Under the pieces are notes generated by a model. It was given only the letters and a program-made list of their open reading frames with translations, did not search any database and was not told the origin of the DNA. The translations under genes and the position numbers were made by a program. Positions 48,333 to 64,000 of a stretch of DNA of 64,000 nt are shown one piece after another. The DNA is from a virus. The DNA lies in IMG/VR virus record IMGVR_UViG_3300019458_000607, positions 43,779-107,778 of that record, one strand, 5' to 3'. Within the stretch, counting starts at the first letter, position 1. The number at the start of each line of letters is the position of its first letter.

Positions 48333-48806
48333 TCACTTTCCGCTTAGGTCTACTTCTAAATCTTTATCGTCTAACATAATGCCCAAAAAAGGTCTAGAAT
48401 TTTCATGGCTTTCTTCTATTTCATGCCACTCTATTTCTTTTTCTGTAGTGCTAGCATTAATGCATAGATTTATAATAGAGTTAATGTTGTCATCGTAAAC
48501 ATAAATGTTAATTCTTCCAAGTGCCACGTTGCATATTTCTAAATTTAGATCTTTAATTTCTTTGTTCCACCTTACTATTTTAATGATCATTGTTTTTAGA
48601 CGTTCTTTTACCTCTTCTTTTTTCCATATAATTTTATCTTTTTCTTTTTGGTTTGTGCTAGTTAAATTTTCTAATTTTTCTCCAAGCAAAACCAGATTAA
48701 CATAGTCTTTGTTTGCTTTTACTAGGTCTCTACAATATGACTTTATTAATGGCAACATTTTTATTGCATTCTTGACGGTATAATATTTTGGCTGCTTTTT
48801 TGCCAT
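48333..48806 (-). CDS. DUF2203-like protein
   Basis: This 157-residue protein resembles the DUF2203 family. It has an N-terminal YTVKNAIKMLPLIKSY helix, a long charged helical middle and a C-terminal WHEIEESHENSRPFLG, matching the family pattern in which a Trp-His-Glu step is followed by Gly/Arg-Pro. The family's function is unknown. It overlaps the upstream GT9 gene by 46 bases and is the last gene of the minus-strand operon. Confidence 0.6.
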   Translation of the reverse strand: MAKKQPKYYTVKNAIKMLPLIKSYCRDLVKANKDYVNLVLLGEKLENLTSTNQKEKDKIIWKKEEVKERLKTMIIKIVRWNKEIKDLNLEICNVALGRINIYVYDDNINSIINLCINASTTEKEIEWHEIEESHENSRPFLGIMLDDKDLEVDLSGK

Positions 48807-49771
48807 AGAATTTCTTTTATTTTTGCCAGAACTTTTTCCAAATTAACGTTTAAACATCCGTTTTTATAACATTCTCCTATATTGTTTACGTTATGTTGGC
48901 AAAAAATCCTTTTGTCGCAATTATTCGCCGCTATTAATGCATTCTTATTAAACGGTCTATTCTTTATTATTGAAGTAAAAAGGAAGATAGTAACTGTTGG
49001 AACATTAAGTGCGGCAGCAATGTGTTGTGGGGCATTATCAGACCCTATTAGTATTTTAGACATTCCAATTAGTGCGGCCGAAGTTTTTATATCGGCAAAC
49101 ATACCAACAGCATTATATACATTTTTATTACTGGAGACAAGGTCCAATACACTTTCGGCATCTGATTTATCTTCTTGTCCCCCTAATAAAACTATGTCAA
49201 AATTTGGATACTGTAATTGCAAAGAATCTATTAGCTTGGCGAAATTTTGATGTCCCCAAAATTTAAGACTCCAATGGTCCATTTTATTGTTTGCGACACT
49301 TACACAAATAATGTCTTTTTTAATATCCTTTACAAATTCTTTTGCTTCTTCTATATTGTATTCAAATATAGACATCTCGGTAGTTGGTGTTTCGCCTATA
49401 AAACCAAGTTTTTTGGCGAATTCCATCTTAAATTCTACTTCATGCTTTCCCCAACAAGGACCTATATTTAGCTTATATTTATTTTTAGATAGCTTAATTA
49501 ATTCGTTAGACAAAGATTCTATAGATCCTACTGGCGAAATTATTAAATGATCGATAGATGGATAGCAATTATTTAATATTCTTGGTCCATGGTCAGAAGA
49601 TAGTATTGTGTCTATAAAACTTAAGCCTTCTAAAACTCTATTAGACCTGTTCCAGCCAATATATATAAGTTCACAATTTGGCTTAATTGACTTAATGGCT
49701 TTTAAACAAGGAGTTGAAAGAATAGCATTTCCTATGCCAGAATTTTCAATATATACTATTTTCTCTCTCAT
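48761..49771 (-). CDS. GT9-family glycosyltransferase (heptosyltransferase-like)
   Basis: This 336-residue glycosyltransferase of the ADP-heptose:LPS heptosyltransferase (GT9) type contains the family signature GSDNAPQHIAAALNVPTV at residues 243-260 and an N-terminal Rossmann strand with SGIGNAILSTP. The family usually adds heptose to lipid A core sugars or transfers sugars to proteins. Here, with a GT2 in front and a GT9-GT2 fusion further upstream, it may decorate virion or host glycans. It overlaps the GT2 gene by four bases. Confidence 0.82.
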   Translation of the reverse strand: MREKIVYIENSGIGNAILSTPCLKAIKSIKPNCELIYIGWNRSNRVLEGLSFIDTILSSDHGPRILNNCYPSIDHLIISPVGSIESLSNELIKLSKNKYKLNIGPCWGKHEVEFKMEFAKKLGFIGETPTTEMSIFEYNIEEAKEFVKDIKKDIICVSVANNKMDHWSLKFWGHQNFAKLIDSLQLQYPNFDIVLLGGQEDKSDAESVLDLVSSNKNVYNAVGMFADIKTSAALIGMSKILIGSDNAPQHIAAALNVPTVTIFLFTSIIKNRPFNKNALIAANNCDKRIFCQHNVNNIGECYKNGCLNVNLEKVLAKIKEILWQKSSQNIIPSRMQ

Positions 49772-50526
49772 TGTGAGAACTTTTTAAAGTTTGGGTGAGA
49801 TTTAATAATTTCTGGATATTCTCCGGTGTATTTTTTAAAAACTACACCATTTTTAAATACTTTATCATTTTCGTCTAAATTCCAGCTAAATTGCCCATGT
49901 AGATATATTCTTTCTTTTCTTTTTTCAAGAAATCTTTTAGGCGACTTACAGTAACTAAAATGGAAAAACTCTATGTCTTTACAACTCAAAGAATGATCAT
50001 TAATTATTGATTTATCATAACTTATGTCATTTGGCGCAACAAATGTATATTTATTAACATCTTTATCTATTTTAAATAGTCTTGGAAACTCAATTGGACA
50101 ATAATCTACAAAATTATTAACAAATGTCAAAGACTGGAATCTATAAACCAATTCTTTTTTATTAGTGTTAATTAGGCTTTTTACCCTATTTATGTTTGCC
50201 GTATCATATATTTCGTCGGCATCTATTAGCCAGAGCCAATGAGGTTCTTTTGGACAATACTGGAAATATCTATTTCTTTGTTCTAATTGACTATTATCAT
50301 TATGATGAAACAGCTTAATCTTACTATTTTGACTTGCAATCTGTTTTAATATCTCTATAGAACCGTCACAGGATCGTTTATTGCCGTTTATTTTATAGTA
50401 TTCGAGCCAAGATCCTTCTACTATAATAAGTTCGTCTAAATGGTCTATAATGGCCTTTATCACATATGAGATAAAATCTACCTCATTAAAGCAACACAAA
50501 AAGCCAATAGTCTTTATTGTTCCCAA
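49768..50526 (-). CDS. GT2-family glycosyltransferase
   Basis: This 252-residue glycosyltransferase has a GT-A fold. The N-terminus has a nucleotide-binding strand with FLCCFNEVDFISYVIKAI, the acidic metal-binding motif is DAD at residues 102-104 (WLIDADEIYD), and the C-terminal half has the aromatic/histidine-rich acceptor loop (FFHFSYCKSPKRFLEKR). It overlaps the methyltransferase gene upstream by 13 bases and the GT9 gene downstream by four. Together with the fused copy at 55379 it suggests two related enzyme pairs. Confidence 0.78.
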   Translation of the reverse strand: MGTIKTIGFLCCFNEVDFISYVIKAIIDHLDELIIVEGSWLEYYKINGNKRSCDGSIEILKQIASQNSKIKLFHHNDNSQLEQRNRYFQYCPKEPHWLWLIDADEIYDTANINRVKSLINTNKKELVYRFQSLTFVNNFVDYCPIEFPRLFKIDKDVNKYTFVAPNDISYDKSIINDHSLSCKDIEFFHFSYCKSPKRFLEKRKERIYLHGQFSWNLDENDKVFKNGVVFKKYTGEYPEIIKSHPNFKKFSQ

Positions 50527-51065
50527 ATTAATTTACCAGCTGGCTTTCTTTGTGGCATAATAGCAATTAAAGCAGAATATCCTGGCAATGTTGTTATTAT
50601 CTTATATTCCACTTTATACTTATCAAACACATTCTTTACTAGCGTAGCTTTACCAAATTGCCATCTTTCAATTGGCTGACTATCATCTATAATAAGAATT
50701 GCACCTTTATTAAGACAGGCTGCTTTATACTGCTCTAAAGTATATACTGGATCTTTATGAGAATCAAGATATAGAAAAGATATATTCCTGTCCAACTTTT
50801 TTATTGTTTCTGCTCCATCTCCAAGTAAAATTCTTTCTTCATCCAGTCTATGTTGATTTAGAACTTTTTTAGCCAATTCAACGGTATCTTTGTCGTTGTC
50901 TATTGAAATAAAATTTATATCATTGTCGGTGCAGTACTTGAGCAAATATAATGTAGAATACCCATCCTCTTCGCTCTCAAATTCAGATCGCAAACACCCG
51001 ACCTCGAAAACAGGCCCAACAGGAGCCATTGGTAAATATTTTAACAAAAGTTCTGCTTTATTCAT
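50514..51065 (-). CDS. Class I SAM-dependent methyltransferase
   Basis: This 183-residue protein has a Rossmann-type SAM-binding core. Motif I is VFEVGC (residues 19-24), motif II is ISIDND, motif III is GDGAETI, and a strand ends in LYLDSHKD. The fold resembles small O-methyltransferases acting on sugars or lipids (Methyltransf_24-like). Placed between the glycosyltransferases and the MT-A70 gene, it is more likely to modify glycans than DNA. The substrate cannot be read from the sequence. Confidence 0.68.
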   Translation of the reverse strand: MNKAELLLKYLPMAPVGPVFEVGCLRSEFESEEDGYSTLYLLKYCTDNDINFISIDNDKDTVELAKKVLNQHRLDEERILLGDGAETIKKLDRNISFLYLDSHKDPVYTLEQYKAACLNKGAILIIDDSQPIERWQFGKATLVKNVFDKYKVEYKIITTLPGYSALIAIMPQRKPAGKLIWEQ

Positions 51066-51074
51066 TTTTTGTCC

Positions 51075-51461
51075 TCAATATATTAATACATTACTTTTAA
51101 ACATCTTATCAGATGCTACATGAAACTCTTCTTCGGATATTTCTATAATACTGCCCCTTTCCATAAAAGATTTTGGGACTGTATATATCGTTATTTCTTT
51201 AATTTCATCTGAAGTTGTTTCAAAAGTTAATATTTCATACCTATTAACATCATCTCCAACTATTTTAATGTAAAGCCACCAAAATTCAGTCAAAGAATAA
51301 CTATTTTTAACTTTAAAGTATTTGCCGATATTTTTTTTGAGCTTTGGGACATTAATTTTGTCCAATTTATCTTGTAACTCTTCTATATTGCTTGTTATTT
51401 TCTCTCTTTTCTTTTGTAATTGTGATATTTTATAATCTATCTTTTTAGCTGCATTTTTCAT
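51075..51461 (-). CDS. Unknown coiled-coil protein
   Basis: This 128-residue protein is unknown. Residues about 8-40 form a lysine/glutamate coiled coil; the rest is predicted beta with FWWLYIKIVGDD and a strand-rich end. It is separated by nine bases from its neighbours on both sides and has a ribosome binding site (GGAGAAAT). No motif links it to methylation or glycosylation. Confidence 0.5.
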   Translation of the reverse strand: MKNAAKKIDYKISQLQKKREKITSNIEELQDKLDKINVPKLKKNIGKYFKVKNSYSLTEFWWLYIKIVGDDVNRYEILTFETTSDEIKEITIYTVPKSFMERGSIIEISEEEFHVASDKMFKSNVLIY

Positions 51462-51470
51462 ATTTCTCCT

Positions 51471-52076
51471 TTAAGCTACTTTTGTACCATTAACAATAAT
51501 GTCTTTACCAGAAATTATATCGTCTAGGTCTTCTTTTATATCTCGTCCAGTTATTTCATAACCCACCATTGACCATCCTGTTATAATAGGAGGCCTTGCA
51601 AAAATTTCTATCCTAGGCAAATCTCCGACTAACTCAACCATCTTGTCCCTAAAAATAGCAGGCTTCGTAGAATGTGGCTTTAAAACCGGAGCCTCGATGG
51701 TTTGTTTTACGTTGTTTGATTTTCTACTTATCTTGCCTCTTTTGCCTAATAGACAAAGTTCTACATCGTTTCTGCACCAAAATCCAAGTCCAGTATAAGG
51801 CCTTCCTGATTTATAAATTTTCCTCCAGCAAAATGCTAGTGTTACAGGCTTAAAATTCCAGGCGTTAAAAAGCTCCAAGTGTGCTCCGTCTACAATTTTT
51901 GTACATGGAATCCATAAAAACATCACAGCATTATCGTCGGCAATTTCGCCTATTGGCAATTTACATAACTGTTCAATTGTTAGACCATTGTAATGTTTTT
52001 TAGGAGAGCCATGTTTTTTCTCTGTAAAATTACGGAAAAGATATGGCGGATCTAAAAGCAAAATTTTGTGCTTCAT
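51471..52076 (-). CDS. MT-A70 family DNA adenine N6-methyltransferase
   Basis: This 201-residue methyltransferase has the MT-A70 catalytic motif DPPY at residues 9-12 (ILLLDPPYLF), followed by family steps LWIPC, GFWCRNDVELCLLGKRG and HSTKPAIFRDKMVELVG. Such enzymes methylate adenine at N6. In phages they usually protect the genome against host restriction or mark sequences for recognition. No partner restriction enzyme is visible in the window, so it is probably an orphan. The stop of an interrupted small gene directly precedes its start (TAAATG). Confidence 0.85.
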   Translation of the reverse strand: MKHKILLLDPPYLFRNFTEKKHGSPKKHYNGLTIEQLCKLPIGEIADDNAVMFLWIPCTKIVDGAHLELFNAWNFKPVTLAFCWRKIYKSGRPYTGLGFWCRNDVELCLLGKRGKISRKSNNVKQTIEAPVLKPHSTKPAIFRDKMVELVGDLPRIEIFARPPIITGWSMVGYEITGRDIKEDLDDIISGKDIIVNGTKVA

Positions 52077-52163
52077 TTAAATTACTTCCTTTTTTGTACT
52101 CAGCCATTCATTTTTATAGTTAAAAACATATTTATTAGACTTTTGAAACACTGCATTGATATG
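52077..52163 (-). pseudogene. 3' part of small gene split by the TnpB element
   Basis: Directly before the MT-A70 start, a frame runs ...HINAVFQKSNKYVFNYKN, then EWLSTKKEVI and stop (52077-52079). It has no start of its own and reads out of the right end of the TnpB element. On the other side of the element, an ATG at 53493-53495 overlaps the stop of the zinc-ribbon gene (ATGA) and reads MKKLKH before entering transposon sequence (5' part 53478-53495). Joining both at the shared CAT codon gives an uninterrupted 33-codon frame. I infer that the element landed in this small gene. Its function is unknown. Confidence 0.5.
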
Positions 52164-52300
52164 ATACACCCTCGACTAAACGTCGAGGGTTTCTGGTTAT
52201 CTAATTTAGACATAGCCTAAACTCCTTCCCAGTTTAGGGATTACCATTAAGCCCCACCTTAAGTTTCTGATTACTTGAGGTTTGACCATACCGCTTTGCT
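52164..52300 (-). ncRNA. Predicted omega RNA and right end of TnpB element
   Basis: TnpB proteins use a guide RNA transcribed from the 3' end of tnpB through the element's right end. Here two hairpins lie in this stretch: an 8-bp stem around the tnpB stop (CCTAAACT/AGTTTAGG, 52216-52238) and the 9-bp palindrome ACCCTCGAC/GTCGAGGGT (52168-52190). The guide would begin just beyond the right end, near ATCAATGCAGTG on the minus strand. The upstream border is a guess. Confidence 0.45.
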
Positions 52301-53259
52301 ATGTTAAACGCAGCATTAGCATCACGATGGTCATTGTGTCCGCAGTTAAAACATTTATATGTCTTACTCCTTGGCAGATTGATTGTTCCACAACGACTAC
52401 ATTCCTTACTGGTATTTTTTGGTGAAACGTAGTGAATGGATACACCACACAAGCCAGCCTTGTAAGTTATGAAAGATTGAAGTTGTCCATAGGACCATTG
52501 GTCTCTTTGTATTTTACGGTCAATCTTACTTCCTTTTACTTTAAGTTCTTCCACAACAATGGCTGATGAATGTTTTTGGGCATAATCAACAATTTGCCTT
52601 GACACTTTGTGATTAACATCTTTTGTTCTATTTAACTGTTTCTTTGACAATTTCTTTAATAGTCGTTTCTTTCCCTTTCTGGCAATCTTTGCCTTTCTAT
52701 TTCTGAAATTCTGCTTAATATCTTTGATTGATGGTCCAAGCCGTAGAACTTGACCATTTTGAGGATTAGCAAGTGTTGCCACATTGCCTTTGTAGTTTCG
52801 GTCAATACCTATTATATTTTGAGTTTCTGTTTCTGATTGGCAAGGTGTATCATATTGATATGTGAGATACCATTTCTTTTTTCTACGGAAGATTTCTATG
52901 TTTCTGATATGTCCAGATATTGGCTTTGGGAACCTTACAGATAACACTTGTTTCTTAAACAAAGCAGGAACACGAATACCAAAGGGATTACCATCTTTGT
53001 CGTGTTCCAACTTGACCTGCTTACCCTTATCTCCACACACTGGGATTACTGGTTTAGATACTCGCTTACACTTTTTGTTTCTTTGATACTTGGTAATCAG
53101 CGATTTGGCAACAACACAAGGAACATCCTTGTAATATTTAGAGGATGACTTTTCTCGGTTCTTTAGCATTAACTCTATGGTAGATTTAACTTTAGAGTTC
53201 AACTCTTCCAGGAAAGGATATAGATTATGCGGAAGCAAGACCTTGAAAGAAAGGACCAT
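52234..53259 (-). CDS. tnpB: TnpB RNA-guided nuclease
   Basis: This TnpB-family protein is the ancestor-type relative of Cas12. The RuvC-like nuclease residues are all present: Asp in GIDRNYKGNVA, Glu in VVEELKVKG and Asp in NDHRDANAAFNIA. The C-terminal zinc ribbon is complete (CSRCG and CFNCG). A basic helical insert, KKRLLKKLSKKQ, lies between the first two. I start it at the ATG at 53259 (MVLSFKVLL), where similarity to the family begins; an ATG at 53283 and a TTG at 53313 would add 8-18 residues over tnpA. At 341 residues it is slightly shorter than many TnpBs (about 370-400) but lacks nothing essential. It should cut DNA guided by its omega RNA. Confidence 0.9.
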   Translation of the reverse strand: MVLSFKVLLPHNLYPFLEELNSKVKSTIELMLKNREKSSSKYYKDVPCVVAKSLITKYQRNKKCKRVSKPVIPVCGDKGKQVKLEHDKDGNPFGIRVPALFKKQVLSVRFPKPISGHIRNIEIFRRKKKWYLTYQYDTPCQSETETQNIIGIDRNYKGNVATLANPQNGQVLRLGPSIKDIKQNFRNRKAKIARKGKKRLLKKLSKKQLNRTKDVNHKVSRQIVDYAQKHSSAIVVEELKVKGSKIDRKIQRDQWSYGQLQSFITYKAGLCGVSIHYVSPKNTSKECSRCGTINLPRSKTYKCFNCGHNDHRDANAAFNIAKRYGQTSSNQKLKVGLNGNP

Positions 53260-53502
53260 TGTGTTTTTTCGCTTACCTTCCATTGCGTTTTTGTTACCAA
53301 GTTTAGATACCAAGTTCTAACTCCTAAAATACTTAAGGTGCTAAAGAATCAGTTTAATGTTATTGCTAAAGCACTCAATGTTGAGGGCCTTGAGTTTGGT
53401 GGAGAAGCAGACCACATACACTTTATTCTAAAAACTACTCCACAGGACAATCTTGGACAACTCCTTCAGTGGTTTAAATGCTTGAGTTTTTTCATACTAT
53501 GA
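53227..53502 (+). pseudogene. Truncated TnpA (HUH/Y1 transposase)
   Basis: This is the N-terminal two thirds of an IS200/IS605 transposase: HCVFSLTFHCVFVTKFRYQVL, then GLEFGGEADHIHFILKTTP with the HUH-type His-x-His pair, then DNLGQLLQWFK. The C-terminal part with the catalytic tyrosine helix is absent; the frame runs out into phage sequence. It overlaps the 5' end of tnpB on the opposite strand. It cannot be an active transposase, so the element is immobile unless helped by another TnpA. Confidence 0.85.
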
Positions 53503-53698
53503 CTCCTTCCATGAATCTATTAAATAACAACATTTTATCTTTTTCTGGTTGTTTCTCTAATAATATAACAACTAATCGTAACATGCATGGACTACATATA
53601 TCGTATTTTTGTATTGGTCCATTTTTTAAAAATCCAATTTCTATTGACAAGGCATTTTCATGGTTACATCTATCACAAATTAATCCGCTTGAACTCAT
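53492..53698 (-). CDS. Small zinc-ribbon protein
   Basis: This 68-residue protein has two cysteine pairs, CDRC (residues 8-11) and CSPC (about 35-38), separated by 23 residues, which should bind one zinc ion. The rest is a helix with hydrophobic residues (LRLVVILLEKQP) and a charged end. It overlaps the kinase gene by one base (TAATG), and its stop overlaps the ATG of the interrupted small gene. The function is unknown; small zinc ribbons in phages often act as transcription or replication accessory factors. Confidence 0.6.
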   Translation of the reverse strand: MSSSGLICDRCNHENALSIEIGFLKNGPIQKYDICSPCMLRLVVILLEKQPEKDKMLLFNRFMEGVIV

Positions 53699-54261
53699 TA
53701 TATTATGCTTAAAACCTTTGCAACTCTTTCTTCGTCTGTGCCACTTATTCTATGATAATGCATTTTATGCAATTCTAAAAAGGACACTATTTGAGAATCA
53801 ACATTTTTTGCTTCTTCTTCAGATTGCTTTCTAGTTCCATCTTTTAAATATGGCTTTTCTCTACTAACAAAGAAAATATAATTATAGTGACTAGTATACT
53901 TTGCCAAAAATTCATTATATAAATGTAAATAAACTGTTCTATCTTGGTATAATGTTGGCGTAATTAAATTAAATGTAAATATTAATGGCAAAAATAAAGG
54001 GGAGTCTGAAATTGAAAAACGAACATTTTCAGGAACTGCCATTTCTCTCTCGACTTGCTTGGCGAATATTAATTGCTGGTCGGATAATTCCGGTGAAAAT
54101 TGCCCATGAAAATTACATTCGTCTATATATAGCCTAGCATATTCTTCTATGTGCTTTGTATTTATTCCCTTTTCATTATATAATTTAGTAGTTAGCTGTC
54201 TAGCCAAAGAAGTTTTCCCGGATCCAGGGCCTCCTGATATTGCGATCCTAATAGTACTCAT
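53698..54261 (-). CDS. P-loop kinase, NadR-like (AAA_28 type)
   Basis: This 187-residue P-loop protein has Walker A GGPGSGKTS (residues 10-18) and an EEYARLYID step that matches the NadR ribosylnicotinamide kinase/AAA_28 family. A strand with FSISDSPLFLPLIF may be Walker B. NadR-type kinases phosphorylate nicotinamide riboside; related phage enzymes act on nucleosides or in NAD salvage. No NMN adenylyltransferase domain is attached. It overlaps the ligase by four bases and may serve nucleotide or NAD+ supply for replication. The substrate is uncertain. Confidence 0.55.
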   Translation of the reverse strand: MSTIRIAISGGPGSGKTSLARQLTTKLYNEKGINTKHIEEYARLYIDECNFHGQFSPELSDQQLIFAKQVEREMAVPENVRFSISDSPLFLPLIFTFNLITPTLYQDRTVYLHLYNEFLAKYTSHYNYIFFVSREKPYLKDGTRKQSEEEAKNVDSQIVSFLELHKMHYHRISGTDEERVAKVLSII

Positions 54262-55382
54262 AACACCCTAATTCCTTTTACTACTCCAAATCTAGGAATT
54301 CCATATTCATTGTATTCTTGAAATTTTACAGTAACCATTTTGCCTTTATAATTATCGAAGTTTTCTGCTATATATTTAAGTGTTTCAAATGGTCCATCAG
54401 GTTTTGCCTCAAATGTTTTAATTTCGCCTTTAATATTTATTTCTAATACTAAATTTGCACAAAGCCCATTAAGTTTTGACCCTGGCTTTCCAAGATTAAA
54501 ACCTACAACTTTAAACTCACTATCTATAAATTTCTTGAACTTAAGTAGATTAGTGGATCTTTTTTGTTCATAAGGTGAATCATTATCAACCCTTATGATG
54601 ACACCTTCGTATTTATTTTTTGTAAACTTATCGTGATACATCTCTATGTTTTCGTTAGAAAAAGTCTCTGAATAAGTTTCTACTATTTTTAGTAATTTGC
54701 TATTTTTTATTTTTGACTTCAAATGAGAGTATCTATCTCTAAATGGAGAGATTGATATCATGTCAAATATATTATATAGTATTTTTTCATATCCTTCTGG
54801 CAGTTCTTTTTCTTGTCTAACTATGTGTGTTATATCATTGAAACTAGTTTCATGCGAATAAAGTTCTCCATCCCATATCTCGCCATTTTCCATGATTTTA
54901 TTTAATTCTTCAGCTATATTTGGCAAAGATGTTATCGGTTTTCCGCCACGGGACCATAGCTTAACATTATTGTTAGATTTTCTTGCTATACATCTTAGAC
55001 CATCTAGTTTTGGAGAATAAAATATCTTTGTTTCTCCTTGTTTTAAAAGATGTTCTTTATCTTTTAAATTATGAGCAAGCATTGGTTTTATTTTGGAATT
55101 TTTAAAGTTATCTATGTCTATTAAATTTTCGACATAATTTTTGTCTAGTTTTTTATTCCACATAGACTGTGCTTGTTTTTTTGCTTGTTCCAAGGCAGTC
55201 GTCTCATTGGACTTTCCTATATTTTTGCCCAAAGAAATATGTTCTTGTGTACGTTGTATTTTGCCGTCCACAACCCCATATTCTATATTTATAATGGCAT
55301 TATCTTCGTTTCCAGATACCCATATATTCCAACACTGGATACTGCCACTGCTATTTCTCTTGTATAATGTTTTTAGGCTCAT
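54258..55382 (-). CDS. ATP-dependent DNA ligase with N-terminal WGR domain
   Basis: This 374-residue ligase carries the nucleotidyltransferase motifs in order: motif I KLDGLR with the nucleophilic Lys125, motif III IWDGELY, motif IV YEGVIIR and motif V LLKFKKF. An OB-fold-like C-terminus ends the protein. The first 85 residues are a WGR-like domain (IQCWNIWVSGNEDNAIINIEYG), otherwise found in PARPs and some bacterial DNA-repair proteins. Ligases with WGR domains occur in a subset of phages. It should seal nicks during replication and repair. It overlaps the genes on both sides by four bases. Confidence 0.9.
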   Translation of the reverse strand: MSLKTLYKRNSSGSIQCWNIWVSGNEDNAIINIEYGVVDGKIQRTQEHISLGKNIGKSNETTALEQAKKQAQSMWNKKLDKNYVENLIDIDNFKNSKIKPMLAHNLKDKEHLLKQGETKIFYSPKLDGLRCIARKSNNNVKLWSRGGKPITSLPNIAEELNKIMENGEIWDGELYSHETSFNDITHIVRQEKELPEGYEKILYNIFDMISISPFRDRYSHLKSKIKNSKLLKIVETYSETFSNENIEMYHDKFTKNKYEGVIIRVDNDSPYEQKRSTNLLKFKKFIDSEFKVVGFNLGKPGSKLNGLCANLVLEINIKGEIKTFEAKPDGPFETLKYIAENFDNYKGKMVTVKFQEYNEYGIPRFGVVKGIRVL

Positions 55383-57385
55383 TTTTTTAGTGGATGTTTA
55401 ATTGGCGTATAAGCAATAATATCGTTATTAACTTTTATTCTGCTAGATATATCTTTTGTGGTATTGTGCGTTTCTTCTTTTTTCCCATGAAATGTCTGAT
55501 CCCAGAATTCACCATTATTTTCCTTTCTGTCTAAACTGTGCCAAGAATAATGATAAACTATTGGGGAAGTTTTTTGCAACTTCTGTAACTCAGATATATA
55601 TATTGCTGCATACTTATCAAAATTATTTTCTTGCTTTATTGCATAATGTACTTCGGCAAAACTTTTTGGAAATATGGCTCTATGAGGAACAATTTTAAGT
55701 GAGTCAAAATAAACGAATTCACATCCATCTGAGTGTTTTTTGGACATCGATATACACATTTTGTCCGTGTCGAAAATTCTTGCTTCTGCATGAACTCCGT
55801 GAATCATATTGGGATTATTTTTGGAAATACGCCATTTATATGGATTATCTTCTATCCTAGTGTGTTCATCGTCGCCGTAAAAATTAATAACTGGAAAGTC
55901 CATTAATTCAACATTTTTATTTTTCTTTATTATGTCTCTAATAGCTCCTGTGTATGGTTCTTTTATAATCTCATCTGCATCTAATTGTATAAGCCAATTT
56001 CCAGTACACTTTTGGCGGGCATAAGTTTTTTCATCACCAAACAATGTTGGGTTATCGAGGTCCCAAGGATGTTGAAATATTTTTATTTTGCTCGATTCTG
56101 ATTCATATGGACTCCTGTTTTCATAAATGTTATTACATTCTAGACATTTAAAATCTACATCACGTATTAAATCTCCAGAACCAATTCTATATTTTGCTCC
56201 GCATTTACATTGTAAATCTCCCCATCCACTGCCCGACGTTAACATAGCATCATTTGGTAATCTACTATAAAAGTCCATTTTTAGTATATCGGCTGGAGCA
56301 AAGTACTGGGAATCAAAAGACATTTTTTGTAATTTTTCACAAGTTCCATCTGTAGATCCACCATCGACTACTACAACTTCATCCGAGACAAGACAGGCGG
56401 CTTTAATACATTCTTCAAATGGGAATCCATATTTTATACCGTCTTTAATAATAATATATGAGGAAATTTTTATTTGCTCTTCTGGAATTACATTTTCTTT
56501 GCCTATTATTTCTGCAACCTTGTCAGCCACAGTTTCTGGTAGTATATTATTAATACATTTATGACCAGTTTTATCTTCTTCTAATGCACATTTATGTAAA
56601 TGACAAGATGTAACGCAACGACCTCGATCTTGTGTTTCTATATAATTTAGGTTTTTATAAAATGGACTGATTGCTGCTTGTGGTGTAGTTCCTCCGAACA
56701 ATATAACGGATGGTGTGCCAAAATGACCAGCAAAATGCATCATTACTGAGTCTGCCCCAATATGACAAACTGCTCCTTTAATTATTGCGGCACATTCTCT
56801 GAAATTTGTTTTGCCACAAAAATCAATTACTTTGTCTGATATTTTAGTTTCGTTAGCTGCTCCCATTTGAATAACTGGGAGTTTTATTCTTTCGATCACT
56901 TCTTTTAAGTAATCATAGTCTTTAACCTGTTGTCCACTCTTGCCTTGTACAGTAACATATTTTTCTGGCAAATTAAGCCTTGAAATATCTGGCAACGATA
57001 TAAAAGGTTCTGATAAAGGAACATTGCACATATTGGCATAAAGTTGACCAAGGAATACAGAATATTTACCAGACAACCAATTAGAAGGAACTCTTTGTGT
57101 AGTTACTGCTGGAACATAGACTATATCAAATGGATTGTCCATACAAGCCCATTTTCCATAAGCTCTATAATCCCACATTGAATCATGCCATTCTAGCAAT
57201 TTTTTAATATTAGGATTTTCTTCTAAAATGTTCCAAAATCTTTTATCGCAAGCAACGTAAATTAAAGAATTGGGATATTTCTTTTTAAGCTCAGATATAA
57301 TTGCCGATGTTATAAATATATCGCCAGCAGATTCTTTTATGCCGACAAGAATCTTTATTTTGTCTTCTATGATTTTATTAATCAT
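55379..57385 (-). CDS. GT9-GT2 fusion glycosyltransferase with zinc ribbon
   Basis: This 668-residue bifunctional glycosyltransferase has a GT9 domain at residues about 1-300, with CHIGADSVMMHFAGHFGTP as its signature. A GT2 domain from about 310 onwards has VVVDGGSTDGTCEKL and the metal motif LDADEI near 455. Within the GT2 is a zinc-ribbon-like insertion of roughly 25 residues (CKCG and CLEC, about 388-415). Two cysteine-rich stretches in the linker (CVTSCHLHKC, CINN) may bind another metal. Separate GT2 and GT9 genes exist downstream (49768, 48761), so this is the fused version of a similar pair. The product sugar is not predictable. Confidence 0.8.
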   Translation of the reverse strand: MINKIIEDKIKILVGIKESAGDIFITSAIISELKKKYPNSLIYVACDKRFWNILEENPNIKKLLEWHDSMWDYRAYGKWACMDNPFDIVYVPAVTTQRVPSNWLSGKYSVFLGQLYANMCNVPLSEPFISLPDISRLNLPEKYVTVQGKSGQQVKDYDYLKEVIERIKLPVIQMGAANETKISDKVIDFCGKTNFRECAAIIKGAVCHIGADSVMMHFAGHFGTPSVILFGGTTPQAAISPFYKNLNYIETQDRGRCVTSCHLHKCALEEDKTGHKCINNILPETVADKVAEIIGKENVIPEEQIKISSYIIIKDGIKYGFPFEECIKAACLVSDEVVVVDGGSTDGTCEKLQKMSFDSQYFAPADILKMDFYSRLPNDAMLTSGSGWGDLQCKCGAKYRIGSGDLIRDVDFKCLECNNIYENRSPYESESSKIKIFQHPWDLDNPTLFGDEKTYARQKCTGNWLIQLDADEIIKEPYTGAIRDIIKKNKNVELMDFPVINFYGDDEHTRIEDNPYKWRISKNNPNMIHGVHAEARIFDTDKMCISMSKKHSDGCEFVYFDSLKIVPHRAIFPKSFAEVHYAIKQENNFDKYAAIYISELQKLQKTSPIVYHYSWHSLDRKENNGEFWDQTFHGKKEETHNTTKDISSRIKVNNDIIAYTPIKHPLKK

Positions 57386-59270
57386 TCTGTATTTGCTTTC
57401 TAATTTTTTCTACAGGATCGGTAAGAGCTAGATCAGGATTTTTTATCAGCATCTTACTAAAATTCTCAGAATTAACCATTTGTCTAAAATGTTTTTCTAT
57501 TTCATATCTGGCCTTATTTTTGTCAGTAGCATTTTCTATTGCTCCTGTCCAGTGCTTAAGTCCTTCTGGATCAATACCAGATCGGCCCAATATATTCTTA
57601 TAGCACCAAACAAGCCATTCTCTGTTGCCTTCTTTGTCAAAAGCAGTTGATGGGGGAGAATTTTCGTTAATAGTTTTTATTTCTATTGTTCTTTCCCAAG
57701 TAGTTTTTCGATCTTTAATTGGCACACTTAATAAATGATATTCTAGTTTAGTAGCTGCCAAATCCCAATTATAATATTTTTCCGCACACTTTCTAGCTTC
57801 TATGGACATATTAGCTCTTTTATTTTCATCTCTTAACAACATTGCCATTTTTTCTGCAAGGTCATACCTATCAAACAATGATCTATTTTGCATTGTTTCG
57901 CTTTCCACATAAGTCATCGCTTTTGGGTTTTCTGTAAGATTCTTTATTGGTAATGCTCCTCCATTTCTGGCTTTTTCATACATTGCAGAATAATCTGATA
58001 TTAAACAAGGACAGCCAGCCGATTTAGCCTCTGAAATTGGGATTGCATCACCTTCGGCTATGCTTCCTTGGATATATATGTCCATTAAATTATATATAAA
58101 ATTAAAGTGTTCTGGTGGATATCCAAATTGAGTATTTGGAGTATGAAATGTATTATTTCCACACGAAGGACAATTAGTTGGAGAGCCTACAAATGTAGAT
58201 ATTGCTACCATTCCACAAGAATTGCACAAATAAGAAAATACAACATGGTCCATTAGTCCACATCTTGCTATTGCTTCTGGAAGATCCCATCCGACATCTG
58301 GGACCGAAGTGTGAAGTAATAACATTGTGTCTTTTGATTCTAATGGATAATTTTCTTTAAGAATCTGAAATGACTGTAATATTCTTGGAAATAGTTTTCT
58401 TGGTTGATTTCGCATTACGGTGCCAACAAGTTTTATTCCTGGAGGAATGCCGAATGCTTTTTTTGCCTCTATTTTATCTATTGGCTTAAATATGCTATTG
58501 TCAACTCCTGCCTGAATTACATCTGTCACATTTAATGGTTTTATATTCATTTTTCTAGCCAAAAGACATCTGCTTTGCTCTTCTAAAACTTTTTTGCCAA
58601 ACCAAGAGTAAGCAAACAGATGGTCAACTTTAGAATAGTCTCTTAGCCATTCCCATTTTTGTGGATGAGAATCTACACAAGCAGACAAGAAAAACAAAAA
58701 ATTATCTCTTAAAGGAGATTGGTTTATATGTTCAACCATCCATGCATCTCGCAAATCAAATAAAACATCTGGCTTAAAATCTGCCAATGCATATGAAAGT
58801 TTCCACTTGCCAAATTGATTTTGTCTATAATTAGATTGATATTCTTGTGCCTCTATATTATTAATAGGAAGTACGTGGTAATATTGCCAAGGTATACTTT
58901 CGGCCCTTGGCTCTAAAGATCTTGCATTTCCGTAACTGGCTATTTCTGCAATATCGAATTTGCCGATTTTATGAAGTCTTTGCATTACTTCACTTGTAAA
59001 AGTTGCAAATCCAGTATTCAAATAAGATGCCTCGCTACTAAAAAGTATTCGTCTTTTGTAGTCAGACTTAGGTAAGGCATTAATTTTTCTTTTAATTTCG
59101 ATTATATCATTACCAATATCTTGGAAATCTGCTCCAATAATATCTGGCATTGAGTTTAACTTAAAAGACTGAGCAGGCGTACAATGAGATTGTTCTTGAA
59201 ACCTTGTTCTTGCCGCTCTCTTTTCTGCTCTTCTTTGGGCCTTAATCTGTTGATTCCTGTTCTTGCTCAT
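57378..59270 (-). CDS. GT4-like glycosyltransferase with zinc ribbon and DUF4214-like tail
   Basis: This 630-residue glycosyltransferase starts at the ATG at 59270 (MSKNRNQQIK), which follows GGAG; an upstream ATG at 59291 has no ribosome binding site and overlaps the SSB gene further. After a basic N-terminus comes a GT-B fold: RILFSSEASYLNTGFATF in the first half, VIQAGVDNSIFKP, and the donor-site step SIAEGDAIPISEAKSAGCP. A zinc-ribbon-like insert (CNSCG and CPSCG) lies between. The C-terminal 65 residues resemble DUF4214 (CYKNILGRSGIDPEGLKHW), a domain found in secreted or glycan-associated proteins. It overlaps the fusion GT gene by eight bases. Confidence 0.75.
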   Translation of the reverse strand: MSKNRNQQIKAQRRAEKRAARTRFQEQSHCTPAQSFKLNSMPDIIGADFQDIGNDIIEIKRKINALPKSDYKRRILFSSEASYLNTGFATFTSEVMQRLHKIGKFDIAEIASYGNARSLEPRAESIPWQYYHVLPINNIEAQEYQSNYRQNQFGKWKLSYALADFKPDVLFDLRDAWMVEHINQSPLRDNFLFFLSACVDSHPQKWEWLRDYSKVDHLFAYSWFGKKVLEEQSRCLLARKMNIKPLNVTDVIQAGVDNSIFKPIDKIEAKKAFGIPPGIKLVGTVMRNQPRKLFPRILQSFQILKENYPLESKDTMLLLHTSVPDVGWDLPEAIARCGLMDHVVFSYLCNSCGMVAISTFVGSPTNCPSCGNNTFHTPNTQFGYPPEHFNFIYNLMDIYIQGSIAEGDAIPISEAKSAGCPCLISDYSAMYEKARNGGALPIKNLTENPKAMTYVESETMQNRSLFDRYDLAEKMAMLLRDENKRANMSIEARKCAEKYYNWDLAATKLEYHLLSVPIKDRKTTWERTIEIKTINENSPPSTAFDKEGNREWLVWCYKNILGRSGIDPEGLKHWTGAIENATDKNKARYEIEKHFRQMVNSENFSKMLIKNPDLALTDPVEKIRKQIQND

Positions 59271-59604
59271 TATAGGAATTCTCCGAATCATAATTACCGA
59301 CAGATATAATAGAAACTTTGTTGGCCGTTATTTTAAGCTTGGACAATGTTTCCCCAGTTTGCTTGGAAACCCAAATATCCCGTCGTAATTGTCCTACTAT
59401 CTCAACAAGATCGCCACGAAATATATTATCTTTAATATTATTTACTTCTTCTCCCCAAACTTCTATGTCTATAGATAGAGGATTTTTTACTTTCCTAGTT
59501 TTATGAACTACCCTAAAATCTGCTACTGGAATTTGATGTTTCTTGGTGCTCTTAAAAGATATATCTGAGGATACTCTTGCACTAAGCTGTATTTGATTAG
59601 ACAT
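59242..59604 (-). CDS. ssb: Single-stranded-DNA-binding protein 2
   Basis: This 120-residue OB-fold SSB-like protein has strands IQLSARVSSDISFKST, DIEVWGEE, GDLVEIVGQLRRDIW and LKITANKVSIIS. The acidic C-terminal tail (SYNEQEQESTD) lacks the classical aromatic tip. It lies nine bases downstream of another SSB gene, with which it shares the overall order of strands but little sequence. A single stretch binds ssDNA during replication or recombination. Confidence 0.75.
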   Translation of the reverse strand: MSNQIQLSARVSSDISFKSTKKHQIPVADFRVVHKTRKVKNPLSIDIEVWGEEVNNIKDNIFRGDLVEIVGQLRRDIWVSKQTGETLSKLKITANKVSIISVGNYDSENSYNEQEQESTD

Positions 59605-60073: not shown

Positions 60074-63000
60074 TTATGGCTGTTCTACATGATTAACTAT
60101 GAAAGATCCTCCTTTTTTATGGCCTTTAAAAAGTAAAACACTATCTTGTTTTATAAGTGTTTTGTGAATCGAATAACAACTATTAAACATTACTGCATCT
60201 AACATAAAACTTTTATCTTCTAATGTAATAAATGCCATTTCTCTCTGTCTTTTATCAAGAATCTGCCTAAAAGAAGATATTTTTGCCACTGCACAAATTT
60301 GTGTATTATCTTTCTCTTTCTCAACTTCAATTAGGAAATGACTAACCTTCTCATTTAAGAACGAATCGACGGATGAACAAGTTGCAGGAATGCCCAAATA
60401 ATGTCCTTCAAACCTTGCCAAATCTCTTATACAATATTCTTTCCCATTATCATAATTACTAATAAAATACTGACATTCTATAGCAAGATTACTAGCTCTA
60501 TTTGCATTAATTATTTTCAACTCTTTGTTTTCTTTGTTTATAAAATCCAGCATGATTTGTACAGATTCCTCAAATGATTTTCCTTTTTGTAATTGCAGAC
60601 TTTTTATTTCGCTTTTAGTTTCCTTTGTTATTTTATCAGGAATACCAATAAATATATGATTAAATATTGGCAATTCTTTTTCTGTTAGTTGATTAATAAA
60701 TTCTTTGCACATCATCATTTGTTTTCTGCTTAGTCCGAAATGGCTCATTGCTCCGCTTAGAACCATACCGTCGAATATGTTTTTCTTGATTTTGCTGAAT
60801 AATATATCGTGCCAACTCATACCACTGATTTTCTCTATATATTTTATGGCACTTTCTCCTATTCCTTTAACGTGACTTAAGCCAAAATATATATTGTTGC
60901 CATCTACTTCAAAATCTTTGTTTGCCCTTTTTATACTTGGCGGCAAAATATGCACATTAAATCTTTTGGCATCAAAAAATATTGACCTTATTTCTTCTTG
61001 AGGATTTTGCTCATTTTTAGAATAATAAAGTAATGACCAAAAGAATTTTGACGGATCATTTAATTTAAGATATGCAGTAATATATGCAAGTTTAGCATAA
61101 GCTAGAGAATGCGAATTAGAACATACCATCCCATTTGCGACAAAATTATGTTCTTCTGTGTCCATTTCAATATCATAAGTATCTTCCAATCCATGGTATT
61201 CTATGGAAATGACTATACTTTCTTCTGTTTCATTTAAGTTATTACAAATTATACTGGTTTCGTTTATTAAAAAATCCTCTACTTTTACATATCCATTATT
61301 GGTATAAAATTTATGGTCTTTTGTTGTCCTTATGCTTTTGCCATTAGATAAAGTAATAGTGTAAGTTTCTTTTTTGCCATTAAAATAAATATCCTTTATT
61401 TTTCTTGGTCTAATACGACCATCTTTATCTAGAGCAAGTATTTGCCCATATCCATGTATAGCATATTGTTTATCATTTTTTATTTTGAATAAATGCTCTA
61501 TAGAAATAATACTTTTTGACCGTTCTTTGTTGCCACGATAAACTAAAGTTTCTCCTGAAATGCACTTGTTAAAGGAATAATCGGCAGTAGCATTTACCCA
61601 CTTCCAAAGTTTTTTTGCTGTTTCTTCTTTGTATCCTCTAGATAAACAGCCATCAATAAATTCTTTTTCGTATTTAGCCATTTCAGCAGGTAGTTTTTTA
61701 CCACAATTATGCACCAATATTCCATTTATAAATCCACAGCGAGAATCTTCTACTTCGAAATCAAAAACTTCTTTAGTTCCTACCATTTTAATATCTTTAA
61801 TGCCAACAAATTTAAATCCTGAGTCTATTACAGATTGTAATAAATTACTTCCTATTTTCTTGTTAATAAAATTAGCTACATCATATGTCATGTTTTTACT
61901 ATAATGTGCTCCTCCAATATTACCAACTAAACTATGCATATTAACAGTTTCTGACATGGATTTAACTATCTGATTAGGAATTAAGAAAGATTTATAACTT
62001 TTTTTATATTCCTTTGTAATTATACTTTCTATTAATTTTAGCTTAATTGGACATATATAATTTTTATAAGTATTATAAAAGAGCGTTACGGCACTTCTTT
62101 CAGATATACAAACATTATAAGATATATATGGTTCATTTTTATAGGTAGAATTTTTAGTTAATAAACTTGCATGAATACCATCTCTTAATAATAAGATTTG
62201 TAAATTTTTCGCTATTTGTTTCGATGTAGTTGACATAGCTATGCTATTTTTTGTAACATGCCCCTCTCCTGAAAAATAACTTCCAATAAATTGCGTGGTT
62301 ATTCCATTCATAGCATGAACTATATATTTTGGTATGTATTTGTTTCTTGATTTGCATCTCTTGTAGATTGACTGTATCCATAACTTGGCGTTATTTCTAA
62401 GGTGAATATCTTCACACCTGGTAACAGGATGAATGGTGATTTTAAACGATTCTTTTCCAAATTCTTCTATTAACTTATCTTTAATGTTTTTTAATATCCA
62501 GTTATCAGAGTTAGTTATTTTTGGGTCACATTTATCTGTATAACATCCTTCTCCTATAAAATAGGACAAAATAGTAGATTTATTTTTATTGAATTTACCA
62601 TGCCCCTTGTAATGATAATTGTTTGGCAAAACTACAAAATCATTAGTGGATAAATTTTCTACTGTTTTCCAGCCATCTTGTGTAAATACTTCGTGATCTT
62701 TGGTTAGTTCAATGTGAAACCCGTTTTTGGTAGACAATCTAAAAACTTCCTTCTCTCCATTGCTCCAAACATTATTTATTCTTTTATAAACCAAACTATT
62801 ATCTTTGTCTATTGTTAATATTTTTTGATCGTATTTAGATTGCTTACCAATCTTTTTGGCAACTTCTTCTATTTTTTGTGGGCCATGGTTTGTTAACATT
62901 AAAGATCCCTTTGCAATACATGCCTTCCGAATTAAGTCCCCCTTAGCTAAATCAAAACCTGCAAATTTGCTTACTATTTGAATCATGGACTCTTGGTAGG

Positions 63001-64000
63001 TCATAACTCCAAATGTCTTTTCTAATATGGGTTTCAAGTCTTCGTGCAAATATATAATCTCTTCTGGTTTTGCCCTATTTTTTAAATATTCATCGGCCAT
63101 TCCTATTTCCAAAATTGCGGGTCTTAATAGAGCGTTAATATCAGAAAGCTCATTTAGGTTTTTTGGCTTAATTTTTTTACACCAGTTTTTACCTAAAGGA
63201 GTTTCAAGTTGAAATATTCCTCTGGTATAACCATTGCTTATTAGCTCATAAACTCTTTTATCGCTAAAATCTTTAAAGTCTCTAATATTTCCATTGTATA
63301 TTTTACTACATACATCAAGGGTTTTTAATCCTAGAATGTCTAATTTTAGATATCCCATTTCTTCTAGATCATACATGTCAAAAGCCGTTAACGTTTTGCC
63401 ATTTTTTGCGTCATAACAAAGAGGAATTTTTCCGAATACTGGCTCATCAGCAATTAATATGGCCGATGCATGAGAAGATCTTTGCCTAGCTATATTTTCA
63501 AGTCTTTGTGCTACGTCAAATGTGACTTTTAATTGCCTTTGTCTTTCGGCAATCATATCTTCAAGAACTTTTATTTGGGCTTTATCTTTAGATCCAGATA
63601 TTTCTTGCTTCCATCGTTCTGTGTCTTTATCTTCGCCTTCAGTTGCCAGCGCTTTTATTTCTGGTACTTCTTCTATTGCTTGTTTTATGCTTTCACACTT
63701 ATGAGGGAAAAGATCAGTAAGTTCATTCATATAGGAAAATGGCAGCCCAATAACTTTGCCAACATCTTTTATTGCGGCTTTAGATGCCATCGTAGACACG
63801 GTACACATTTGGAAAATTCTATCTTCTCCAAATTTATTTCTTAGATAATCTACAACCTCATTTCTTCTTTCTATACTAATGTCCAAATCTATATCAGGAT
63901 ATGAGCCTTTTCTTCCTATATTGTAAAATCTCTCCCAAATTAAGCCATATTCTATAGGATCAACTGCTGTTATCTCCAATAGATAAGCACACAGGCTTCC
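60074..64000 (-). CDS. dnaE: DNA polymerase III alpha subunit with two inteins (5' end outside window)
   Basis: This is the replicative polymerase of the bacterial PolIII alpha (C-family) type. The frame is open to the right window edge and the PHP domain is not included. Residues numbered from a TTG at 63979: catalytic aspartates in PDIDLDIS (Asp29, Asp31) and KLDILGL (Asp214), followed by thumb and fingers, and a C-terminal OB-fold (ICAVAKISSFRQILDKRQ). Two inteins interrupt it, at the conserved IRKA/CGKK step and within the FNK/SHSLAYA step, both in the polymerase core. Phage genomes with their own PolIII alpha are uncommon and large. The two SSB genes follow directly, as a replication cluster. 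Confidence 0.93.
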   Translation of the reverse strand, partial: GSLCAYLLEITAVDPIEYGLIWERFYNIGRKGSYPDIDLDISIERRNEVVDYLRNKFGEDRIFQMCTVSTMASKAAIKDVGKVIGLPFSYMNELTDLFPHKCESIKQAIEEVPEIKALATEGEDKDTERWKQEISGSKDKAQIKVLEDMIAERQRQLKVTFDVAQRLENIARQRSSHASAILIADEPVFGKIPLCYDAKNGKTLTAFDMYDLEEMGYLKLDILGLKTLDVCSKIYNGNIRDFKDFSDKRVYELISNGYTRGIFQLETPLGKNWCKKIKPKNLNELSDINALLRPAILEIGMADEYLKNRAKPEEIIYLHEDLKPILEKTFGVMTYQESMIQIVSKFAGFDLAKGDLIRKACIAKGSLMLTNHGPQKIEEVAKKIGKQSKYDQKILTIDKDNSLVYKRINNVWSNGEKEVFRLSTKNGFHIELTKDHEVFTQDGWKTVENLSTNDFVVLPNNYHYKGHGKFNKNKSTILSYFIGEGCYTDKCDPKITNSDNWILKNIKDKLIEEFGKESFKITIHPVTRCEDIHLRNNAKLWIQSIYKRCKSRNKYIPKYIVHAMNGITTQFIGSYFSGEGHVTKNSIAMSTTSKQIAKNLQILLLRDGIHASLLTKNSTYKNEPYISYNVCISERSAVTLFYNTYKNYICPIKLKLIESIITKEYKKSYKSFLIPNQIVKSMSETVNMHSLVGNIGGAHYSKNMTYDVANFINKKIGSNLLQSVIDSGFKFVGIKDIKMVGTKEVFDFEVEDSRCGFINGILVHNCGKKLPAEMAKYEKEFIDGCLSRGYKEETAKKLWKWVNATADYSFNKCISGETLVYRGNKERSKSIISIEHLFKIKNDKQYAIHGYGQILALDKDGRIRPRKIKDIYFNGKKETYTITLSNGKSIRTTKDHKFYTNNGYVKVEDFLINETSIICNNLNETEESIVISIEYHGLEDTYDIEMDTEEHNFVANGMVCSNSHSLAYAKLAYITAYLKLNDPSKFFWSLLYYSKNEQNPQEEIRSIFFDAKRFNVHILPPSIKRANKDFEVDGNNIYFGLSHVKGIGESAIKYIEKISGMSWHDILFSKIKKNIFDGMVLSGAMSHFGLSRKQMMMCKEFINQLTEKELPIFNHIFIGIPDKITKETKSEIKSLQLQKGKSFEESVQIMLDFINKENKELKIINANRASNLAIECQYFISNYDNGKEYCIRDLARFEGHYLGIPATCSSVDSFLNEKVSHFLIEVEKEKDNTQICAVAKISSFRQILDKRQREMAFITLEDKSFMLDAVMFNSCYSIHKTLIKQDSVLLFKGHKKGGSFIVNHVEQP
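61115..61564 (-). other. Intein 2 in DnaE, mini-intein without endonuclease
   Basis: This 150-residue intein lies at residues 806-955. It begins CISGETLVYRG; block B has TKDH (IRTTKDHKF) and block F has YDIEMDTEEHNF. It ends GMVCSN, with a +1 Ser (SHSLAYA). No LAGLIDADG or HNH domain is present, so it is a splicing-only mini-intein. The penultimate residue is Ser rather than the usual His, a variant known from some active inteins. Confidence 0.9.
61706..62920 (-). other. Intein 1 in DnaE, with LAGLIDADG endonuclease
   Basis: This intein of 405 residues lies at residues 354-758 of the readable part. It begins CIAKGSLMLTNHG and ends ILVHN with a +1 Cys (CGKK). Block B has the TKDH motif. Two LAGLIDADG-like motifs are present, ILSYFIGEG and FIGSYFSGEG, with Glu in the catalytic position of both. 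All splicing residues are intact. The target lies in the most conserved part of the fingers, a site where inteins are hard to lose without inactivating the polymerase. Confidence 0.92.

What the first reader, a model, noticed from the sequence alone, without database searches (positions are those of the whole stretch)
52077..53495. TnpB element has split a 33-codon phage gene, and its guide would match the empty site
A start MKKLKH (53495 down) on one side and ...HINAVFQKSNK to a stop at 52077 on the other rejoin in frame at a shared CAT codon. The predicted guide, just outside the right end (ATCAATGCAGTG on the minus strand), is exactly the right-hand part of this small gene. TnpB would thus target uninterrupted copies next to AAGCAT, favouring spread or retention of the element among related phages in the same cell.
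Basis: inference. Interest (0 to 1): 0.65.

Follow-up and report, generated by a model that had tools for sequence, protein, structure and literature searches.

The report
TnpB element that replaces start codons
A small jumping element carrying the RNA-guided nuclease TnpB did land in a tiny phage gene, but exactly on that gene's start codon, and its relatives do the same while supplying a new in-frame start signal at their own end; this copy has lost the parts it needs to move.

Summary
The element (about 1.33 kb) is an IS200/IS605-type unit with an intact-looking TnpB. Its TnpA is cut off before the catalytic tyrosine and its left end is deleted.

Seven related elements show the family rule. 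They sit directly behind RTGAA, where RTG is usually the start codon of a gene, and end in ATCAA. Empty sites in related genomes confirm two insertions without target duplication; a third left flank (different TnpB) also has an empty counterpart. In all seven the right end carries its own start codon in the frame of the interrupted gene.

For the window this gives an empty site ATGAA (53495-53491) plus the right flank, most likely a 27-codon gene (MNAVFQ...KKEVI). A 5-base duplication at the right end probably puts restart and guide out of register, so targeting of the original empty site is doubtful. TnpB driving itself against empty sites is published; start-codon insertion with an in-frame restart was not found in the papers searched.

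The parts
53492..53698 (-). 68-aa upstream phage gene, intact; its TGA overlaps the interrupted gene's ATG
   Evidence: 40% identical to the L008 homologue (residues 8-68), so phage DNA begins here
53503..53510 (-). Ribosome-binding site GGAAGGAG of the interrupted gene
   Evidence: read from sequence
53491..53495 (-). ATGAA: start codon of the interrupted gene and inferred target motif (TAM) of the element
   Evidence: RTGAA flanks seven relatives with TnpB, and empty sites confirm the junction for two
53487..53488 (.). Deletion scar: left end and tnpA 3' part missing
   Evidence: tnpA homology ends at S87; no left-end motif between 53200 and 53800
53227..53487 (+). tnpA remnant (Y1 HUH transposase, HIHF motif kept, C-terminal part with catalytic tyrosine lost)
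   Evidence: Pfam Y1_Tnp positions 1-75 of 121; NCBIfam transpos_IS200 2-82 of 126; alignment with five relatives
52234..53313 (-). tnpB, 359 aa, open; RuvC acidic residues D171, E255, D331 and zinc ribbon present
52161..52213 (-). Leader reading frame in the right end (MSKLDNQKPSTFSRGCI), start ATG 52213 behind AAGGAG at 52222-52227
   Evidence: resembles the L002 leader MLDNSNPSMLNRGCIN
52169..52189 (-). Right-end / omega-RNA terminal hairpin CCCTCGACGTTTAGTCGAGGG
   Evidence: stem kept by paired changes among eight elements
52156..52168 (-). Right-end tail TGTATCATATCAA: canonical TGTATCAA with a 5-base TATCA duplication (preferred reading), or ending at 52161 as TCAT by point mutation
   Evidence: comparison with seven relatives that end in ATCAA
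52077..52155 (-). Rest of the interrupted gene (NAVFQKSNKYVFNYKNEWLSTKKEVI), also the source of the guide sequence
   Evidence: coding score; stop lies 1 base before the MT-A70 start
51471..52076 (-). MT-A70 type DNA methyltransferase gene
   Evidence: 60% identical homologue in L008

Best explanation
This is an IS200/IS605-type TnpB element that inserted immediately behind the start codon (ATGAA) of a 27-codon phage gene and was later immobilised by a deletion of its left end and of the 3' part of tnpA. It belongs to a small TnpB clade that uses RTGAA as target motif and TAM, so it tends to sit on start codons. The right end of these elements carries a start codon, usually behind a ribosome-binding site, in phase with the lost one; translation can restart in the element, read through the omega-RNA hairpin as a leader of up to about 20 codons, and continue into the interrupted gene. 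SHOWN from sequence: target motif, precise joints against two empty sites, in-frame starts in all seven relatives, loss of left end and TnpA tyrosine in the window. INFERRED: that the restart is used, that TnpB cleaves DNA next to RTGAA with the right flank as guide, and that in the window the 5-base duplication breaks both restart and guide register.
For: TnpB and truncated TnpA identified. Left flanks of the relatives: ATGAA in L002, L003, L004, L035, L049, L052 and GTGAA in L053. Joined open frames of 207, 53, 75, 295, 256, 50 and 105 codons, and a right-end start in the same frame in 7 of 7. Start-like context in 6 of 7 against a background of 4-24% of DTGAA sites per locus, P about 2e-5. 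Empty orthologue of the L035 site, 93% identical over 806 nt across the joint, with ATGAA as start codon of a 297-codon gene. Empty orthologues of the L059 site, where the match runs through the joint, GGAGCAAAAG ATGAAG... coding MKTRAKLLAAGLFAV.... Empty counterpart of the L057 left flank, also a start codon. The L049 joined gene begins within about 5 residues of the annotated starts of intact phage homologues; the L002 joined gene is a Peptidase_C39 from residue 7. Window: ATGAA lies 3 bases from the tnpA remnant and overlaps the upstream stop; the right-flank frame scores as coding.
Against: No empty copy of the window's own site exists in the collections searched, so its ancestral gene is inferred. 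The right-end tail in the window (TCAT ATCAA) departs from the family; if it is a point mutation rather than a duplication, the guide stays in register and the gene would be a 21-codon ORF in a frame without coding signal. L052 may have inserted at an internal ATG (81 open codons upstream). Four of seven flanks have no clear ribosome-binding site. Start-codon bias could be survivorship. Expression was not measured.
Confidence: 0.78

Rival explanations
1. One reading: a 33-codon gene (MKKLKHINAVF...) split at a shared CAT, with the guide matching an empty site next to AAGCAT.
For: Both pieces read in one frame, and the right-hand frame scores as coding.
Against: KLKH is antisense tnpA; no left end at that boundary; every relative uses RTGAA and ends in ATCAA.
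Confidence: 0.05
2. Same family and target motif, but the right end in the window ends at TCAT (point mutation). The empty site was then ATGAAATCAATGCAG..., the gene MKSMQCFKSLINMFLTIKMNG, and restart and guide are still in register.
For: Keeps the hairpin-to-end spacing of all relatives and the leader frame.
Against: That frame has no coding signal (-0.3 bits) while the other does; it would be the only element not ending in ATCAA.
Confidence: 0.2
3. Start codons are not sought out: the transposase recognises NTGAA anywhere, and only insertions that leave a gene usable survive, because the right end happens to restart translation.
For: Two flanks of a related TnpB type are TTGAA with uncertain start-codon status (L048, L060); L052 may be internal.
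Against: Does not conflict with the anatomy; it explains the bias by selection instead of targeting. Two bacterial insertions confirmed by empty sites are at start codons although the interrupted genes need not be essential.
Confidence: 0.4
4. The immobile copy is kept because TnpB and its RNA do something for the phage: homing-like exclusion of element-free phages, or regulation of the flanking genes.
For: tnpB is open with its catalytic residues although tnpA and the left end are gone; L049 also lacks tnpA and a recognisable left end but keeps tnpB. TnpB driving out element-free plasmids is shown elsewhere (PMC11870625).
Against: A recent deletion explains the same picture; the guide is probably out of register here; the 99.7% identical contig L010 ends 3 kb short of the element, so conservation cannot be judged.
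Confidence: 0.2

Closest known systems
IS200/IS605 family elements with tnpA and tnpB (ISDra2, IS608)
   Same: Y1 HUH TnpA, RuvC TnpB, subterminal hairpins, insertion 3' of a short motif without target duplication, guide taken from the right flank (PMC8612924).
   Different: Motif RTGAA instead of TTGAT or TTAC; insertions on start codons; right end with an in-frame start. The window copy lacks the left end and the TnpA tyrosine.
IStrons (IS605/IS607 plus group I intron)
   Same: A TnpB-type element that makes insertions harmless to the interrupted gene (PMC4227781).
   Different: Done there by RNA splicing; no group I intron here (Rfam). Here the gene would be restarted by translation from the element.
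TnpB gene drive on plasmids
   Different: Shown for plasmids and mobile elements; here a phage and an immobile copy whose guide is probably out of register.
Cas12f1 / Cas12f-like nucleases
   Same: Closest solved structures by sequence (8j1j, 8j12, 7wju).
   Different: No CRISPR array noted beside it; flanked by a tnpA remnant and an IS right end.

Membership tests
IS200/IS605 element | Y1 HUH transposase TnpA | tested here: inconclusive
   Clear homology and HIHF motif, but cut at position 75-82 of about 121-126, catalytic tyrosine missing; the relatives have full-length TnpA.
IS200/IS605 element | TnpB with RuvC triad and zinc ribbon | tested here: met
   guided_TnpB 136 bits against cut-off 100; D171, E255, D331 invariant in A4; Cas12f1-like_TNB.
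IS200/IS605 element | Right-end hairpin | tested here: met
   Hairpin with compensatory changes.
IS200/IS605 element | Left-end hairpin next to the target motif | tested here: not met
   Absent in the window, present in relatives; the window copy is a derivative of the family that has lost it.
IS200/IS605 element | Insertion 3' of a fixed motif without target duplication | tested here: met
   In relatives, by empty sites; inferred for the window.
IStron | Group I intron in the element | tested here: not met
   No Rfam match in the window.
RNA-guided TnpB (OMEGA) system | omega-RNA expressed and guiding cleavage | not testable with these tools
   Only a conserved hairpin and guide position are seen.
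TnpB gene drive | Guide matches the element-free allele next to the TAM | tested here: inconclusive
   In relatives with confirmed joints it does by position; in the window the preferred reading is 5 bases out of register.

The most novel reading that the evidence does not exclude
A clade of TnpB elements has adapted to insert on start codons (TAM RTGAA) and carries in its right end a ribosome-binding site and start codon phased to the motif, so that the omega-RNA end doubles as a leader peptide that keeps the interrupted gene translated: a translational counterpart to IStron splicing.
Probability: 0.5. Interest if true: 0.72.

Novelty: new variant of a known kind. Interest (0 to 1): 0.56.

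Why it matters
If the restart works, these elements solve the problem of damaging the host gene in a new way: they replace a start codon with another in the same frame, using the DNA that also encodes the end of the guide RNA. Because the TAM includes the start codon, the guide is always the first codons of a gene, and TnpB would attack every allele of that gene that still has its original start. That makes the cost and retention of TnpB elements directly testable in a two-plasmid assay, and gives a TnpB with an RTGAA motif of possible use as a tool.

Tried and rejected
No DNA match of the region in 50,697 phage records. Viral scans with MT-A70 and the AAA gene found no close relative of the locus. 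The nearest contig by DNA (L010, 99.7% over 7,380 bp) ends 3.1 kb before the element. The related phage L008 has the neighbourhood without the element but with changed gene order and an unrelated small ORF; DNA comparison with the right flank gave only chance matches. No homologue of the 27-residue product in phages and no Pfam match for it or its rivals. No tRNA or Rfam family in the window. A search of 399 genomes of the same bacterial class found the TnpB only in the three genomes already known, so the family sample stays small. A six-base TAM (ATGAAC) was first considered and dropped, because RTGAA plus ATCAA gives the correct joints and frames. The L057 right flank was dropped as a test: in relatives its two flanks lie on different contigs. 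Paper searches for TnpB with start codon, ribosome-binding site or ATGA found no report of this arrangement; only open-licence PMC papers were searched.

Full report
WHAT IS THERE. The window is part of a 107.8-kb uncultured phage record. On the minus strand, between a 68-aa gene (53492-53698) and an MT-A70 methyltransferase gene (51471-52076), lies a TnpB gene (52234-53313) and, divergent to it, a piece of tnpA. TnpB passes the NCBIfam guided_TnpB cut-off (136 against 100 bits), keeps D171, E255, D331 and the zinc ribbon, and its closest solved relatives are Cas12f/TnpB proteins. TnpA is broken: the match stops at position 75-82 of 121-126 and the alignment with five relatives ends at S87 (window 53487), before the tyrosine motif. 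No left-end motif is left within 53200-53800.

The 'shared CAT' belongs to the element's right end. So the 33-codon gene as written never existed in that form, although the right-hand frame is correct: it scores 6.1 bits over 26 codons, above all 98 off-frame open windows, and stops one base before the MT-A70 start.

THE FAMILY RULE. Seven related elements (43-54% identical TnpB over most of the length; L002, L003, L004, L035, L049, L052, L053) were read base by base. The left flank is ATGAA six times and GTGAA once. Where the left end is intact (six of them) it begins directly behind the motif, at a near-constant distance from its hairpin. All right ends finish ...ATCAA after a hairpin kept by compensatory changes. 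Joining RTGAA to the right flank gives open frames of 207, 53, 75, 295, 256, 50 and 105 codons starting with that RTG. In six of seven the upstream frame closes within 25 codons, as expected for true starts; among other DTGAA sites in the same loci 4-24% look like that, so six of seven has P about 2e-5. L052 may be an internal ATG.

EMPTY SITES. For the L035 element (Acidobacteria MAG) the orthologue in another genome (L067) has no insertion; the joined flanks match it at 93% over 806 nt straight through the joint, where ATGAA is the start codon of a 297-codon gene behind GGGAGGG. For a second, internally deleted copy in the same genome (L059) two relatives carry the empty site, and the match runs through the joint; one (L088) shows GGAGCAAAAG ATGAAG... 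coding MKTRAKLLAAGLFAV. The left flank of a third element, with a different TnpB but the same type of left end (L057), corresponds to another start codon, GGAGGAACTCCT ATGAAATACGC. No target duplication is seen. In L049 the rejoined gene begins within about five residues of the annotated starts of intact phage homologues.

THE RIGHT END RESTARTS THE FRAME. In all seven relatives the right end holds an ATG in the frame of the interrupted gene, with no stop before the joint: MCLSKRNPDVRENPRVHSGSIK (L003), MQLGKQNPRVCPGSIK (L004), MCLSKQNPRACPRSIK (L035), MPNQGSKNPRVYSGSIN (L052), MPVSKRNPRVYSGSIN (L053), MLDNSNPSMLNRGCIN (L002), and a four-codon MSIK whose ATGA overlaps the stop of a short upstream frame (L049). 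Most have GGAGG or a similar sequence at normal spacing. In L003, L004 and L035 the start overlaps the end of tnpB. Length differences among the five elements that share this type of start are 3 or 18 bases, that is, in frame. The phase is a property of the element, because motif and cut site have a fixed offset; the seven are therefore not independent trials. That the restart is used is inference.

BACK TO THE WINDOW. The flanking ATGAA (53495-53491) fits the rule: it is a start codon behind GGAAGGAG, overlaps the stop of the 68-aa gene and lies three bases from the tnpA remnant; the chance of an RTGAA within 20 bases is about 5%. The right end has the family hairpin and a leader (ATG 52213 behind AAGGAG, MSKLDNQKPSTFSRGCI, similar to that of L002). 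Its tail reads TGTATCATATCAA instead of TGTATCAA. The simplest reading that keeps ATCAA and the coding frame is a 5-base TATCA duplication: the gene was MNAVFQKSNKYVFNYKNEWLSTKKEVI. Then leader and gene are now out of frame, and a guide counted from the hairpin (ATCAATGCAG...) is shifted by five against the empty site (ATGAA TGCAG...). The alternative, a point mutation TCAA to TCAT, keeps phase and guide but needs a 21-codon ORF in a non-coding-looking frame. No empty copy of this very site was found; the related phage L008 is too diverged to decide.

KNOWN AND NEW. RNA-guided cleavage of the donor joint next to the TAM and its use to retain or spread the element are published (PMC8612924, PMC11870625), and IStrons make TnpB-type insertions harmless by splicing (PMC4227781). 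What I did not find in the papers searched is a TnpB clade whose TAM contains the start codon and whose right end supplies a replacement in the same frame. The sample is small and most members come from metagenomes.

Noticed in passing
window 60074-63979 (-): DNA polymerase III alpha-type gene of 1301 aa with an intein (splicing domain plus LAGLIDADG) at about residues 361-758 and a second insertion at about 804-955; L008 shares the first insertion and lacks the second.
   Followed up: partly
window 10-3027 (+): Terminase large subunit of 1005 aa interrupted by Hint and LAGLIDADG domains, probably an intein.
   Followed up: partly
L008 11221-13431 (-): A LAGLIDADG insertion (probable intein) in a glycosyltransferase gene whose window homologue (57378-59291) has none.
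   Followed up: partly
L049 2977-3010: Another phage element without tnpA or a recognisable left end; the interrupted gene's own ATGAA start reads in frame into tnpB (MKPSSSHSNNMTSEK...), so the host gene's start may now drive TnpB.
   Followed up: partly
L046, L047/L057, L048, L060: A different TnpB type in an Acidobacteria MAG shares the same left end and NTGAA flank, suggesting one TnpA mobilises several TnpB types.
   Followed up: partly
L010 (IMGVR_UViG_3300019487_000735): A contig 99.7% identical to the window's last 7.4 kb extends at least 9.8 kb beyond the end of this record.
   Followed up: no
window 48333-59291 (-): Cluster of glycosyltransferase genes together with an ATP-dependent DNA ligase and a nucleotide kinase; gene order around the kinase and the 68-aa gene is changed in L008, which has no match to the ligase.
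   Followed up: no
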